Assembly (NCBI RefSeq): GCF_041154675.1
Contig: NZ_AP031322.1
Location: forward strand, 1,735,812-1,799,811
DNA length: 64,000 nucleotides
Source: Sulfurisphaera javensis
Lineage (GTDB): Archaea > Thermoproteota > Thermoprotei_A > Sulfolobales > Sulfolobaceae
Reading direction: 5' to 3'
Part shown: one piece after another, positions 18,476 through 57,820 of the stretch
Position numbering within the stretch: the first letter of the stretch is position 1
Layout of the letters: each line of letters starts with the position of its first letter
Translations under genes and position numbers: made by a program
The notes under the pieces: model-generated
The model's database searches: none
What the model saw: the letters and a program-made list of their open reading frames with translations, nothing else
What the model was told of the DNA's origin: nothing

Positions 18476-20020
18476 TTACTCTGGAGGAATTTCTTTGAAA
18501 GTTAAGTTTATATCAATTCCTTCTTTGCTTAATCTATATTGTCTCATAACGTAATATATTACTATACCAGCAATAAACGGAGAAGCTATTAATGCCCAAG
18601 TCTCAGCATTCATTACAATTCCTAAGTATATAGTAGAGAAACCGAACCAGTAGTATGCATAAATGGAGAGCACTATAAGATCTATTATACTTAAAGCTAA
18701 AATTAGCTTTTGGTTACCAACAAGTTTCTGAACATCTTTCCTAAACACTGACACAATAGATGCGATAACGACAATAATGAAACCAAAGAGTAAAGCCATA
18801 GCATCAGCAGTATCCATACCATAGAAGAATGCAGAACTCAATGGGGTAACAGTAATTATTACTAAGCTAGAGATCGTTATTATCTCATCTATTAAGTGAG
18901 CAACAACTGGAGAGTGGAACTTCTCACTTACATAGGAAACTATTGTTGGTAATGCCTTATCAAAAGCAACAGCCATAAAATATCTAGAGACAAATAATGC
19001 CACAGCGAACATTATTGCAATATACCAGAAGTAAGAACTTATTACTAAGAATAAATCTAAAGGTAAATTATTTGTTGCTAATACCACATCATAAGTTGGA
19101 TTTAATAAACTTGAAGCACCAGCAATTCCAGCTCCTATGAAGAATTTAGTTCCTAAACTGCTTAAGCTCATTCCTATGAAGTATGTTATTAATATGCCAG
19201 AAACAACTAAAGCCATCAAAACACCACGAGAAAATGCTTTACTACCACCTTTAACTTCTCCAGCAACAGATGTAGCACCATTAACAAAAGGTAAGAAAGA
19301 TGCAGTAAATACCATTAATCCTATGGTAGCTAAACCTACGTTAGAAAATAATGGAGTAGCTTTGCTAGCCTCACTAACTATTTGAGAATAAGTATAACCA
19401 GATAAGGATATTACAGAAGGAGATACAGTAGTCATTAATGCCCCAGTTAATATGTAACTAACTAAAGCAATTATTGTAACTCCTCCCATAATGCTATTTA
19501 CATATTTAGGTGCGAATATATTTAATAAGATAACAATTGTGAAAGTTACTGCACCTACTAATAGTATTTCTACTGGAGAGGATAGAAAAGAAGCTATAGA
19601 TGAATACACACCACCATACTTAACTCCTAAAGCGGCAAAACCTACCTGAAGTTGCCCAACACTATCATAAACTATTGCAGCATCAAATATCATCTGTGAA
19701 ATTCCAAAAACTAAACCAACACCTACACCTATAGCTGGATGAAGCGATCTGCTTGCAAAAACATAATCTGCAGCAGTCCTTTGATATGTTTGACTTATTT
19801 TAGTCCATAAAAAAGAGTGTGGAAGCAAAACTATCCAGCTTAGTAATGCTGCTAGTAAAGCTAAACCATTTGGTGAGACGTAAAGCCCAGATAAAAAAGA
19901 GACTGGAAGTACATAAAAAGCTATAAATCCCATTGATATGAACATGGCTGTTAACCAACTTATTTCCCTTACTAAACCAGAGGATTCCCTTGCGAATAAT
20001 TTACTTTTTTCTTTCTCCAT
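18476..20020 (-). CDS. APC-superfamily amino acid permease with RESSGLVRE / EIPPE end tags
   Basis: 514 residues, about 12 membrane helices. The N-terminus carries ARESSGLVREISW (residues about 10-22) and the C-terminus ends GIDINLTFKEIPPE; four other permeases in this window share both ends. Helix 1 (LTAMFISMGFIAFYVLPVSF) and a loop with GATSVAGEVKGGSK fit the APC fold, the GE in the latter being a family mark. It lies directly upstream of the arginine deiminase gene on the same strand, so arginine or another cationic amino acid is a reasonable guess for the substrate. Confidence 0.8.
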   Translation of the reverse strand: MEKEKSKLFARESSGLVREISWLTAMFISMGFIAFYVLPVSFLSGLYVSPNGLALLAALLSWIVLLPHSFLWTKISQTYQRTAADYVFASRSLHPAIGVGVGLVFGISQMIFDAAIVYDSVGQLQVGFAALGVKYGGVYSSIASFLSSPVEILLVGAVTFTIVILLNIFAPKYVNSIMGGVTIIALVSYILTGALMTTVSPSVISLSGYTYSQIVSEASKATPLFSNVGLATIGLMVFTASFLPFVNGATSVAGEVKGGSKAFSRGVLMALVVSGILITYFIGMSLSSLGTKFFIGAGIAGASSLLNPTYDVVLATNNLPLDLFLVISSYFWYIAIMFAVALFVSRYFMAVAFDKALPTIVSYVSEKFHSPVVAHLIDEIITISSLVIITVTPLSSAFFYGMDTADAMALLFGFIIVVIASIVSVFRKDVQKLVGNQKLILALSIIDLIVLSIYAYYWFGFSTIYLGIVMNAETWALIASPFIAGIVIYYVMRQYRLSKEGIDINLTFKEIPPE

Positions 20021-20246
20021 ATGAGAATCTAACTTAAAACAGTATAAAAATATTCTTCATAACTATCATTGAAACTTTTCATTTTTAAAAAAGAAATTTT
20101 AAAACATGTTAAAAAGAGGAGGAAGAAAGTAGATGACAAATTATGATAACTTTTATCAATTTAAATAAAACTGATAAGACAAAAATAAAATTTGTATATC
20201 ATAATTATCAATTGAAAGAGAAGAAAGCGTTTAAATAAATAAAAAA

Positions 20247-21227
20247 TTATCCAGTTATGAACTGATGAGCTTTTATCTTATTTCCTTCAACTAATATGTA
20301 AAGACCATGAAATACGCCAGCCGAGTATTCACTTCCCGGATTAAATACTAGAGTCCCAGCCACTTTATCAAATGCTTTTGATTCATGTATATGCCCATGT
20401 ACCCCCATAAGTGGTTTATATTCTTCAATTATTTTTCTAACACTTTGAGAACCCACATGTGTCATAACTATATCTCCTCCTTTTACGACTGGTTTCAAGT
20501 TTTTATCTAACAAAGGAGCATTATCTAAGTTAGTTCCATAGGGCGGAGCATGAGTATTTAATATCACTTTAGATGGATCAGAGACTTTGTTCATAATCTC
20601 TTTCAAATCTTTATAAATCTCTTCCTCATTTTTCTCCCTATAAGTATTCCAAGGGGTAGGATTAACATAACCATAAGATATCATTTCTAAATCCCCAATT
20701 GGTATAATAAATCCCTCAGTCCGTTTAAATATTGACTCTTCTGGAACTATATCAAACATGTACATAGGATCATCATTACCTAGGTTAAAGTATATTGGGA
20801 TTTTAGTATCCTTATATCTTTCTTCAGCTAACTGTATCCATTCCTTTAATCTTTCTTGAATAGCATTCTTAAAAGCCTCATCTACTTTCCTCTTATCTTG
20901 AACCATCTCATCATATTCTTTTTTATCAACAATAACGTAATAATTGCCATTAGCCTTAATTTGTTTAATTACAGTCTCTAATCCTTCCTTACCAACTTGA
21001 GTACTATCAACCTCATATTTTCCATTTCCTATATCAATTATAGGAATTAAAGCCTTTCCGGCCAAATCACCACCTATTATCATAACATCTGCCTTTATCA
21101 TCTTACCAACATTTAAAAACTTTCTAAAAGCAACATCCGATGCATGAAGATCGCTTGTAAACAAAATCTTTAATTGGCTTTTCTTATTATCAACTCCTTC
21201 TGGTTGCTTTCTCTTGAACAGACCCAT
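20247..21227 (-). CDS. Metallophosphoesterase (calcineurin-like)
   Basis: 326 residues from the ATG at 21227; a TTG nine bases earlier is less likely because a TATATA box sits about 27 bp before the ATG. Metal-binding motifs of the family are in order: [22 protein letters not shown] (usually GNHE/GNHD; here the His is Asp), [10 protein letters not shown] and GVHGHIHES. The substrate cannot be told; relatives cleave phosphate mono- or diesters. It stands alone between the permease and the urease promoter region, read on the opposite strand from urease. Confidence 0.8.
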
Positions 21228-56210: not shown

Positions 56211-56269
56211 ACTTTATTCAATTTTTCCCTACTCAAAACTTTAAAGCTGTCTAAAAGTAAATTATCTCT

Positions 56270-57820
56270 ATGGTAGAAAAGTCAGTTTTTATTAGACAAT
56301 CTTCTGGTTTAGTGAGAGAAGTTAGTCCTTGGGCTTCCTTCTTTGCAACATTTGGTTTGGTTACTGGAGGAGTGCCAATGCTAATTTTATCATGGCTTTA
56401 CTTATCTCCGGGAGCTAATTGGACATTGTCTTTCTTAATTACTTTGATACCAACATTAGGCATGGGATTTTTATTTTATTTAGCATCTATTTACTCTCCT
56501 AGGAGTGGAGGAGATTATGTGTTTTTAAGTAGAGTTTCAAATCCTATTTTGGGTTTTGTAAATTATTGGGGATTGTTTATTGCATTTGCATTATCTTTGG
56601 GACTTTATAGTTATTTAGGTGCACAATGGTTCGCATACCTTTTTACCGGAATAGGACTTTACTTAAATAATTCTTATTTAGTTAATTTCGGTAGTTTCTT
56701 TACTACAACGACTGGAAGTGTTATTGTAGGTTTAATAGTATTACTTGCTATTACTTTAGTTTCTTTAACAGGTAAGCATGGATGGAAGTTTATTTTTATT
56801 TCTGGAATAATTTCCATTATTTCAACTATAATTACCTTCGTTACTTTAGCAACGATAAATCAAGCTCAGTTCTCTTCATCTCTTTCATCTTTTACTGGAG
56901 TGCAAAGTGCTAATAATGAAGTCATTACAGCTGCAGAAAGTAATGGTTTGTCTTTTCTTTCTCCTTTTTATGGAGCATTATATGCAATTCCAATAGTCTG
57001 GTATTATTATGTTTGGTATAATCTTCCAGCTTCGTGGTCCGGAGAGATGAAAAAAGTTAAACTTAACGCCTTAGTATCTATAGTAGTTGCTATTTTAACC
57101 ATTGGTATTTATTATATTCTATTTGTAAACCTAAACTTTCATGCCTTTGGTGAAAAATTTCTCACATCTTGGTCTTACATTTATTCAAATGGAATAACTA
57201 ACAGTACAGTATTTAATGATTTAAGTAATATAGGCACTTTTTCACCTTTCTTCGCTTTATTAGTTACTCACAGTTTACCTTTATATATTATAATGTGGAT
57301 TGCTTTTTGGTTACCTAATTTTTACAGTTTAGCCCCATTAGAAATTGCTCTAACTAGGTACTTGTTTGCTTGGTCATTTGATAGGATCATGCCAGAAAGA
57401 TTTGCTGATGTTAACGAAAAATTCCATATTCCTACAAAGGCAACTCTATTAACTTTCGGATTAGGAGTTATTGGAGTACTACTTTACGCTTATGTCACTG
57501 AAATTTCTATTGTAGATGTGACAATTGTCTTTGAGATAGGCTATGCTATATTTGCTTTAGCTTCGGGTATCTCGATATTGAAGAAAAGGATATTTAACAA
57601 ATGGATAAGTTTAGTGAGTTTTTCCGTTTTTGGATTCCTACTTTACGCATTATTCATAACATGGGGAAATCCAGTTCTTTTGCCAATAAACTTACCGACA
57701 ATTCTTTCTTTATTGGTTATTTACGGGAGTGGTATAGGGATATATCTAGTCTCATATCTTACAAATAAGAAAAAGGGAATAATCTTAGATTTGATATTCA
57801 CTGATATTCCACCAGAATGA
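56270..57820 (+). CDS. APC-superfamily permease with RQSSGLVRE / DIPPE end tags (right arm)
   Basis: 516 residues, about 12 helices. N-terminus VFIRQSSGLVREVSPWASFF (residues about 6-25), C-terminus KKGIILDLIFTDIPPE; both tags carry one conservative change (E to Q, E to D) against the other four. Close paralog of the permease at 53581 over the full length. Start is 59 bp after the ureohydrolase stop, same strand, so they are probably cotranscribed. It lies upstream of the right aminotransferase. Confidence 0.82.
   Translation: MVEKSVFIRQSSGLVREVSPWASFFATFGLVTGGVPMLILSWLYLSPGANWTLSFLITLIPTLGMGFLFYLASIYSPRSGGDYVFLSRVSNPILGFVNYWGLFIAFALSLGLYSYLGAQWFAYLFTGIGLYLNNSYLVNFGSFFTTTTGSVIVGLIVLLAITLVSLTGKHGWKFIFISGIISIISTIITFVTLATINQAQFSSSLSSFTGVQSANNEVITAAESNGLSFLSPFYGALYAIPIVWYYYVWYNLPASWSGEMKKVKLNALVSIVVAILTIGIYYILFVNLNFHAFGEKFLTSWSYIYSNGITNSTVFNDLSNIGTFSPFFALLVTHSLPLYIIMWIAFWLPNFYSLAPLEIALTRYLFAWSFDRIMPERFADVNEKFHIPTKATLLTFGLGVIGVLLYAYVTEISIVDVTIVFEIGYAIFALASGISILKKRIFNKWISLVSFSVFGFLLYALFITWGNPVLLPINLPTILSLLVIYGSGIGIYLVSYLTNKKKGIILDLIFTDIPPE

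What the first reader, a model, noticed from the sequence alone, without database searches (positions are those of the whole stretch)
18476..57820. Five APC permeases share an identical-type tag at each end (RESSGLVRE ... EIPPE)
The permeases at 18476, 32629, 50576, 53581 and 56270 all begin within 10 residues with (A/V/L/I)R(E/Q)SSGLVRE and all end exactly in GI-x2-(N/S/D)-L-x-F-x-(E/D)IPPE at the last residue. The membrane parts between differ widely. Codons differ between copies (for example the SSGL codons), so selection acts on protein. The sixth APC permease (48626) has neither tag. Both ends are predicted cytoplasmic, so they may touch each other (a latch or gate), or be read by a common partner: a regulator, kinase, degradation or sorting factor. 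I know of no described function for the pair.
Basis: partly seen in the sequence, partly recalled or inferred. Interest (0 to 1): 0.75.

Follow-up and report, generated by a model that had tools for sequence, protein, structure and literature searches.

The report
Paired end-tags mark one permease family
Five amino-acid transporters in this archaeal genome stretch carry the same short sequence at each end because they belong to one old transporter family shared by archaea and bacteria, and the two ends seem to evolve together as if they meet on the inner face of the membrane.

Summary
In detail: permeases 18476, 32629, 50576, 53581 and 56270 carry both tags; 48626 carries neither. The genome holds 12 tagged permeases. 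The tags are not a Sulfolobales peculiarity: they are the conserved cytoplasmic ends of one APC subfamily found in many archaea and in Chloroflexota, Actinomycetota and one Bacillota bin. Of 77 named loci chosen by the N-tag alone, 73 have an intact complete ORF and all 73 have the C-tail. With tags removed, a tree separates tagged from untagged carriers on one fully supported branch. The C-tail is locked to the chain end (Gly at -14 in 141 of 142). N-tag residue 10 and the last residue are each other's strongest co-evolving partner among 416 testable columns. AlphaFold places the first half of the C-tail confidently but leaves the N-tag and the last six residues unsure. Best reading: two ends that lie on the cytoplasmic face and meet there, a gate clasp as in FurE or Mhp1. 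The family hallmark is near certain; the clasp is about even odds. Against it, one clade has lost the N-tag while five of its eleven proteins keep all or a remnant of the C-end.

The parts
18476..20020 (-). tagged APC permease (514 aa) of the family; no Pfam hit at 1e-3
19964..19996 (-). N-tag F9-E19 of permease 18476
18479..18520 (-). C-tail, last 14 residues of permease 18476
32629..34233 (+). tagged APC permease (534 aa)
32650..32682 (+). N-tag F8-E18 of permease 32629
34189..34230 (+). C-tail, last 14 residues of permease 32629
50576..52123 (+). tagged APC permease (515 aa); AlphaFold model mf62f8bca8924
50594..50626 (+). N-tag F7-E17 of permease 50576
52079..52120 (+). C-tail, last 14 residues of permease 50576
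53581..55176 (-). tagged APC permease (531 aa)
55120..55152 (-). N-tag F9-E19 of permease 53581
53584..53625 (-). C-tail, last 14 residues of permease 53581
56270..57820 (+). tagged APC permease (516 aa); AlphaFold model m6c0d81a484ea; reference numbering of the report
56288..56320 (+). N-tag F7-E17 of permease 56270
57776..57817 (+). C-tail G503-E516 of permease 56270
48626..50482 (+). untagged APC permease of another subfamily; natural control

Best explanation
The tags are the conserved cytoplasmic ends of one ancient APC subfamily (shown), inherited with the carrier and not acquired by unrelated permeases (shown on a core-only tree). Most likely mechanism: the last 14 residues fold back on the cytoplasmic face after TM12, the N-tag lies over the same face in front of TM1 with its end against the TM6-TM7 loop, and the two ends meet so that N-tag residue 10 is near the free C-terminus. 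Together they would form a clasp that stabilises the inward-closed state and must loosen for the inner gate to open. Shown: the family, the co-occurrence, the fixed tail length, the confident placing of the first half of the tail in two models, the coupled evolution of residue 10 and the last residue. Inferred: that the tail is docked on the core, the direct contact of the ends, its opening and closing, and any effect on transport.
For: 77 named loci were chosen by the N-tag pattern only; all 73 with an intact complete ORF have Pro at -3, 68 also at -2, and 72 have Gly at -14. Over 142 proteins (duplicates between sets not removed): Gly at exactly -14 in 141, Pro at -3 in 142, Pro at -2 in 137, while the stretch before the N-tag ranges from 1 to 32 residues. 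Mean pairwise identity 65% in the N-tag and 60% in the C-tail against 28% in the core (69 proteins). The next most conserved windows are the TM2-TM3 and TM8-TM9 loops, also cytoplasmic by the fold. Core-only tree: 52 tagged plus 4 decayed against 20 untagged split on a branch with SH-aLRT 100. AlphaFold: residues 501-510 have mean pLDDT 93 and 89 in two models with a short helix at 506-509 and 505-508; in the 50576 model the only two bridge residues are 18 and 266, which joins the end of the N-tag to the loop after TM6. Co-evolution: last residue versus residue 10, likelihood ratio 22.0, rank 1 of 416 columns (next 15.7); reciprocal rank 1 of 416; again first when the top 14 columns of each scan were retested on a second tree, and above all 112 usable simulations of independent evolution (largest 12.7). 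In 88 representatives, E/Q at residue 10 goes with D/E at the end in 47 of 48; other residues at 10 do so in 21 of 40. Precedent: FurE ends meet by BiFC, and Mhp1's N-tail touches its C-terminal region (PMC6597760, passages, its section '5. Tails allosterically...').
Against: AlphaFold gives low confidence exactly where contact is claimed: residues 1-10 mean 42 and 53, 11-20 mean 72 and 79, 511 to the end 62 and 54. No coordinates were available, so no contact was measured. Only 5 independent pairs rest on supported branches, sign test p 0.25 to 0.5. For residue 10 the runners-up 139 and 156 score 21.0 and 20.2 and lie far from it in the chain in or near TM4, so lineage effects reach nearly as high. 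The pairing is not a simple opposite-charge bridge (E goes with E; R goes often with A). N-C column pairs as a set are only slightly above background in direct coupling analysis (mean z 0.23 to 0.29 against about -0.02). Five decayed proteins keep a C-end or a remnant without a proper N-tag, so the C-tail does something on its own.
Confidence: 0.5

Rival explanations
1. The tags are two separate conserved fold elements of the subfamily. The N-tag caps TM1 and packs on the loop after TM6; the C-tail packs under TM12. Each is needed for folding or gating but they do not touch each other.
For: Both are inherited in one clade. The first half of the C-tail is placed confidently although the N-tag is not. 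A C-end is kept after N-tag loss in L281, L282 and L246, with remnants in L243 and L284. N-C column pairs as a set are hardly above background.
Against: Residue 10 and the last residue are reciprocal best co-evolving partners of 416 columns.
Confidence: 0.35
2. A common partner reads the tags: a kinase, protease, degradation or sorting factor that recognises the free C-end and the N-end of these carriers.
For: The tail is fixed to the very last residue, as in signals read at a C-end. S12 is almost invariant (S in 141 of 142; part of these rows were chosen by a pattern that demands it). A Sulfolobus islandicus amino acid permease, SiRe_1024, is listed as phosphorylated at T6 (PMC7744417, table passage); whether it is a tagged one was not checked.
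Against: The same tags occur in Asgard and other archaea, Chloroflexota, Actinomycetota and an Oscillospiraceae bin. The tail spans 14 fixed positions including hydrophobic ones. All 21 stop-terminated C-end matches checked are members of this family.
Confidence: 0.1
3. The ends act at the level of translation: the Pro-Pro-acid codons before the stop codon stall the ribosome while the membrane protein is being inserted.
For: PP at -3/-2 in 137 of 142.
Against: PP is not required: PA, PV, PI, PT and PS variants exist, while Pro at -3, Gly at -14 and F or Y at -7 hold in 142, 141 and 140 of 142. It does not explain the N-tag.
Confidence: 0.03

Closest known systems
APC superfamily, Pfam AA_permease_2 PF13520 / AA_permease PF00324
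   Same: Four of five window members hit PF13520 above the cut-off; the model of 56270 aligns with AdiC at Z 35.9, 2.7 A over 409 residues.
   Different: None of the Pfam or NCBIfam models hit is specific to this subfamily; the best NCBIfam hit that spans the protein, TIGR00909, is far below its cut-off. The C-tail and F-x-R-x-S-S-G lie outside the region that aligns with the best PDB sequence matches 5oqt/6f34.
FurE of Aspergillus (NCS1 family, LeuT fold)
   Same: N- and C-ends meet in a state-dependent way and tune gating and specificity (PMC6597760, passages).
   Different: Another family with another N-motif (N-X-D/S-hydrophobic-X-P, 10 residues from TM1). In NCS1 the C-tail has no motif conserved throughout, whereas here both ends are conserved across domains of life.
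Mhp1 N-tail (NCS1)
   Same: The N-tail spreads over cytoplasmic loops and touches the C-terminal region (PMC6597760, section 7 of the outline).
   Different: Another family; its N-motif as given by the review is not found here.
GadC C-tail and yeast Mup1 C-plug (APC family)
   Same: A C-terminal tail covers or fills the cytoplasmic side of an APC carrier (PMC6597760; PMC7449699, passages).
   Different: No paired N-tag is described in those passages. Here the tail is 14 residues and ends at a fixed position.
LeuT/DAT inner gate (Arg5-Asp369)
   Same: An arginine or lysine before TM1 (residue 16, R or K in 142 of 142) and an invariant aspartate at the cytoplasmic end of TM8 (D371) sit in similar places (gate described in PMC6597760).
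   Different: The equivalence is by position only; no bridge was measured. The review states that APC N-tails do not form such bridges.

Membership tests
APC superfamily carriers | Pfam PF13520 or PF00324 above cut-off | tested here: met
   met by 32629, 50576, 53581, 56270; 18476 had no hit at 1e-3 but is 26% identical to 56270 over residues 5-516
APC superfamily carriers | LeuT/APC fold | tested here: met
   AdiC Z 35.9, 409 residues, 2.7 A; model mean pLDDT 92.9
TIGR00909 (2A0306, amino acid transporter subfamily) | score at or above the curated cut-off of 556.8 bits | tested here: not met
   37.3, 25.2 and 23.7 bits for 32629, 53581 and 56270; no hit at 0.1 for 18476 and 50576
One monophyletic tagged subfamily | tagged cores form one clade against untagged APC cores | tested here: met
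   SH-aLRT 100 for the split; 4 decayed proteins nest inside; quick tree, long branches, no bootstrap or AU test run
One monophyletic tagged subfamily | both tags present in every intact member | tested here: not met
   met in nearly all; exceptions are 11 decayed proteins of one clade, L338 and L199
NCS1 / FurE-type N-tail | N-X-D/S-hydrophobic-X-P motif before TM1 | tested here: not met
   read directly in the N-ends of the five window proteins; motif
FurE-like tail mechanism (works like) | N- and C-ends in contact, state-dependent | tested here: inconclusive
   reciprocal best co-evolution for; low pLDDT of the tag parts concerned against
GadC-type C-tail | C-tail inside the inward-open cavity | not testable with these tools
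   no coordinates or inward-open model

The most novel reading that the evidence does not exclude
A two-part cytoplasmic clasp, made of a fixed-length C-terminal peptide whose free end meets an N-terminal F-x-R-x-S-S-G-L peptide, defines a carrier family shared by archaea and bacteria. It is a built-in inner gate conserved more strongly than the rest of the carrier, so that carriers with very different cores share one gate.
Probability: 0.4. Interest if true: 0.65.

Novelty: new variant of a known kind. Interest (0 to 1): 0.5.

Why it matters
[quoted passage not shown] Here both ends are the most conserved stretches of a family that crosses domains of life, over proteins with a median identity of about 24%. 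This gives a simple sequence mark for naming permeases that profiles miss (such as 18476) and a compact, mutable system for asking whether N-C tail contact is a general gating device in APC carriers.

Tried and rejected
Direct coupling analysis: the strongest C-tail signal, 84-516, rests on near-invariant columns whose contingency table shows no clear association, so it was discarded. Cytoplasmic loops made up 0.30 and 0.40 of the top 40 C-tail couplings at two weightings, against means of 0.18 and 0.20 and maxima of 0.30 and 0.32 in 44 control windows; suggestive only. The same count for the N-tag was 0.22 and 0.20, no different from the base of 0.21.

Translation stalling at PP-acid-stop: rejected because PP is not strictly kept.

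RNA-level feature: Rfam finds nothing in the window at gathering score, and codons differ.

Paper searches for a described pair. One search (SSGLVRE, RESSGLV, FKEIPPE, EIPPE inside words) gave 3,958 papers; the 10 listed matched 'eippe' only and are unrelated, and the rest were not viewed. One search listed 10 of 29. So I claim only that none of these listings showed a described pair.

Exceptions were looked for. N without C in the N-selected set: none of 73 intact complete ORFs. L199 follows its relative L167 almost to the end and then leaves it, with no recognisable tail in any frame of its locus; I count it as disrupted, and counted otherwise it makes 73 of 74. C without N: L281, L282, L246, weakly L243 and L284, and L338.

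Rows dropped before counts: L159 and L161 run off their contigs. L102, L104 and L208 have both tags in different frames. L338 and L339 were left out of the tree and co-evolution sets; L321 (ends EIPP) was left out of the co-evolution sets. L364 and L376 are cut by contig ends; L379 has both tags in different frames. Some loci are the same gene reached twice (for example L077 and L137, or L310 and L346); 256 distinct sequences entered and 88 entered.

Correction to the notebook: the entry gives pLDDT of about 62 for residues 503-516 of 56270. The answer gives 93 for 501-510 and 62 for 511-516.
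Full report
Observation. All five permeases carry the N-tag and the C-tail as described, and 48626 carries neither. Degenerate patterns for the two tags have 6 and 10 matches in the whole 2.57 Mb genome, with none for reversed controls. Of 22 PF13520 hits in the genome, 10 have both tags and 12 neither. Two more tagged permeases, window 18476 and one at C1:100.4-101.84 kb (a variant, RKTSGLLKE ... KEIPPE), are not in that list. 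The codons differ between the five copies.

Relatives in the same family and order. A search with 56270 in 21 genomes found matches in 14. I fetched 60 of the listed matches, 59 from other genomes and one from the own genome, leaving out near-copies. Of these 60, 58 have both tags in one frame; L102 and L104 are frameshifted copies in which both tags can be read in different frames. In 69 intact proteins the median pairwise identity is 24%; the N-tag averages 65%, the C-tail 60% and the core 28%. Invariant or nearly invariant residues are F7, R9, S12, G13, L14, G503, P514 and P515 at the ends, and R78, Y83, R88, E259, R363, D371, P375 and P388 between them (numbering of 56270).

The tags together. 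The scan of named genomes used one pattern, the N-tag. Of 77 loci, 73 have an intact complete ORF and all 73 end in the C-tail with Pro at -3; five vary at -2, and one lacks Gly at -14. Two run off their contigs, L208 has both tags in different frames, and L199 has no recognisable tail. By record titles and the taxonomy they come from Sulfolobales, Thermoproteus and Caldivirga, Thorarchaeota, Bathyarchaeota, Nitrososphaerota- and Thermoplasmatota-type bins, Chloroflexota and Thermomicrobium, Actinomycetota (Solirubrobacterales, Thermoleophilia) and one Oscillospiraceae bin; many are metagenome bins, whose labels can be wrong. In the other direction, a C-end pattern was searched in 31 genomes of the family. 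Of 30 loci checked, mostly one per genome, 21 have a real stop codon and all 21 are members of the family; the other 9 read TGG, lie 8 to 19 codons from the start of their frame and cannot be C-ends of this family. From the profile hits in 398 genomes of the phylum (a list of the best matches, with a model that includes the tags) I fetched 60 outside Sulfolobaceae, nearly all full-length. The N-tag is present in 59 by eye: 54 by script, and looser forms in L334, L335, L336, L339 and L343. L338 lacks it, also in any frame of the 960 bases upstream. Pro is at -3 in 59 of 60, L321 being one residue short; six differ at -2 besides L321. A further 66 profile hits, partly the same genes, have both in 64 by script; one of these 64, L364, is cut by its contig and proves nothing. 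Of the other two, L376 is cut by its contig at the N-end and L379 has both tags in different frames.

Fixed tail length. Over 142 proteins, Gly sits at -14 in 141 and Pro at -3 in 142; nothing follows the tail. The stretch before the N-tag varies from 1 to 32 residues (start codons were chosen by script). The last residue is E in 108, D in 21, and A, V, S, T or I in 13. A tail locked to the chain end, with conserved hydrophobic positions, looks like a docked peptide.

One origin, and a clade that lost it. With tags cut off, 52 tagged representatives and 4 decayed ones separate from 20 untagged proteins (12 PF13520 hits of the own genome and 8 weak profile hits) on a branch with SH-aLRT 100, and the decayed ones nest inside. 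This is a quick tree with long branches and no AU test. The decayed clade, in another family of the same order, holds 11 proteins. L257, L258, L259, L244, L283 and L285 have neither tag. L281 and L282 have FRAYLLRRE in place of the N-tag and end RIPPM; L243 has the same N-end and ends VPQM. L246 has no N-tag and ends EIPPY; L284 has no N-tag and ends HLPPG. So the N-tag seems to go first and the C-end later. Loss is linked, but the C-end can stand alone.

Structure. AlphaFold with 72 sequences gives an APC fold for 56270 and 50576 (mean pLDDT 92.9 and 90.6); the 56270 model is closest to AdiC (Z 35.9). Residues 501-510 have mean pLDDT 93 and 89, with a short helix at 506-509 and 505-508. The last six (five in 50576) have 62 and 54, residues 1-10 have 42 and 53, residues 11-20 have 72 and 79. 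In the 50576 model only residues 18 and 266 carry a bridge letter, so the end of the N-tag pairs with the loop after TM6 next to the invariant Glu; the 56270 model has four bridge letters (18, 79, 256, 260), whose pairing cannot be told. No coordinates could be read, so contacts were not measured.

Co-evolution. On 88 representatives under 60% identical in the core, E or Q at residue 10 goes with D or E at the chain end in 47 of 48; other residues at 10 do so in 21 of 40. A likelihood test of dependent against independent evolution was run for the last residue against every testable column, with the best of eight groupings per column. Residue 10 ranks first of 416 (22.0; next 15.7; 99% quantile 14.3). 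For residue 10 the last residue ranks first of 416, narrowly ahead of 139 (21.0) and 156 (20.2). Retesting the top 14 columns of each scan on a second tree keeps the pair first, and 112 usable simulations of independent evolution, of 120 run, reach at most 12.7. Against this: only five independent pairs rest on supported branches; the chemistry is not a simple salt bridge; residue 10 was first noticed by direct coupling analysis on much the same data; and tag columns are anchored whereas core columns may be misaligned, which favours tag pairs, though other tag columns score like the background. I take this as moderate support for contact.

Context. 56270 lies beside an arginase-family gene (55299) and a class III aminotransferase (58110), 53581 beside another class III aminotransferase (52125), and 18476 beside an arginine deiminase-family gene (17284). 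Substrates are therefore probably amino acids, amines or guanidino compounds; this is inference.

Known systems. The 2019 review of transporter tails (PMC6597760; passages, abstract and outline, one full section) describes FurE, whose ends meet and control gating, Mhp1, whose N-tail touches the C-terminal region, and GadC, whose C-terminus folds into the cavity. It says that APC ends are little conserved. The yeast Mup1 C-plug appears in PMC7449699 (passages). The present family works, most likely, along these lines, but with its own paired motifs, conserved across domains. None of the listings of my paper searches showed this pair described.

Verdict. Family hallmark: about 0.95. Contact of the two ends: about 0.5. 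A dedicated reader protein: about 0.1.

Noticed in passing
window 18476-20020: A full-length member of the family with no Pfam hit at 1e-3, so profile-based annotation may miss such permeases.
   Followed up: yes
window 47388-59453: Tagged permeases alternate with aminotransferases (47388, 52125, 58110) and an arginase-family gene (55299): an amino acid, amine or guanidino catabolism cluster. 17284 (arginine deiminase family) lies next to 18476.
   Followed up: partly
G009 and G095 (genus g7, same family): A genus that seems to lack the family: G009 has no match and only an untagged weak hit; G095 has none at 1e-20, where 3 of 9 candidates were scored. Their only C-end pattern matches read TGG. 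The window's genome has 12 members.
   Followed up: partly
L102, L104, L208, L379: Copies of tagged permeases with both tags readable in different frames; pseudogenes or assembly errors.
   Followed up: no
L243, L244, L246, L257-L259, L281-L285: A clade of relatives in another family of the order that seems to be losing first the N-tag and then the C-end; a natural experiment on what the tags do.
   Followed up: partly
L217, L225, L228, L236, L237, L241, L242: A frame in several family genomes begins MSxEIPPEW or similar, so the same peptide sits near an N-terminus there; the rest of that frame was not examined.
   Followed up: no
PMC7744417, SiRe_1024: A Sulfolobus islandicus amino acid permease is listed as phosphorylated at T6; if it is a tagged one, the site would lie just before or in the N-tag.
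   Followed up: no
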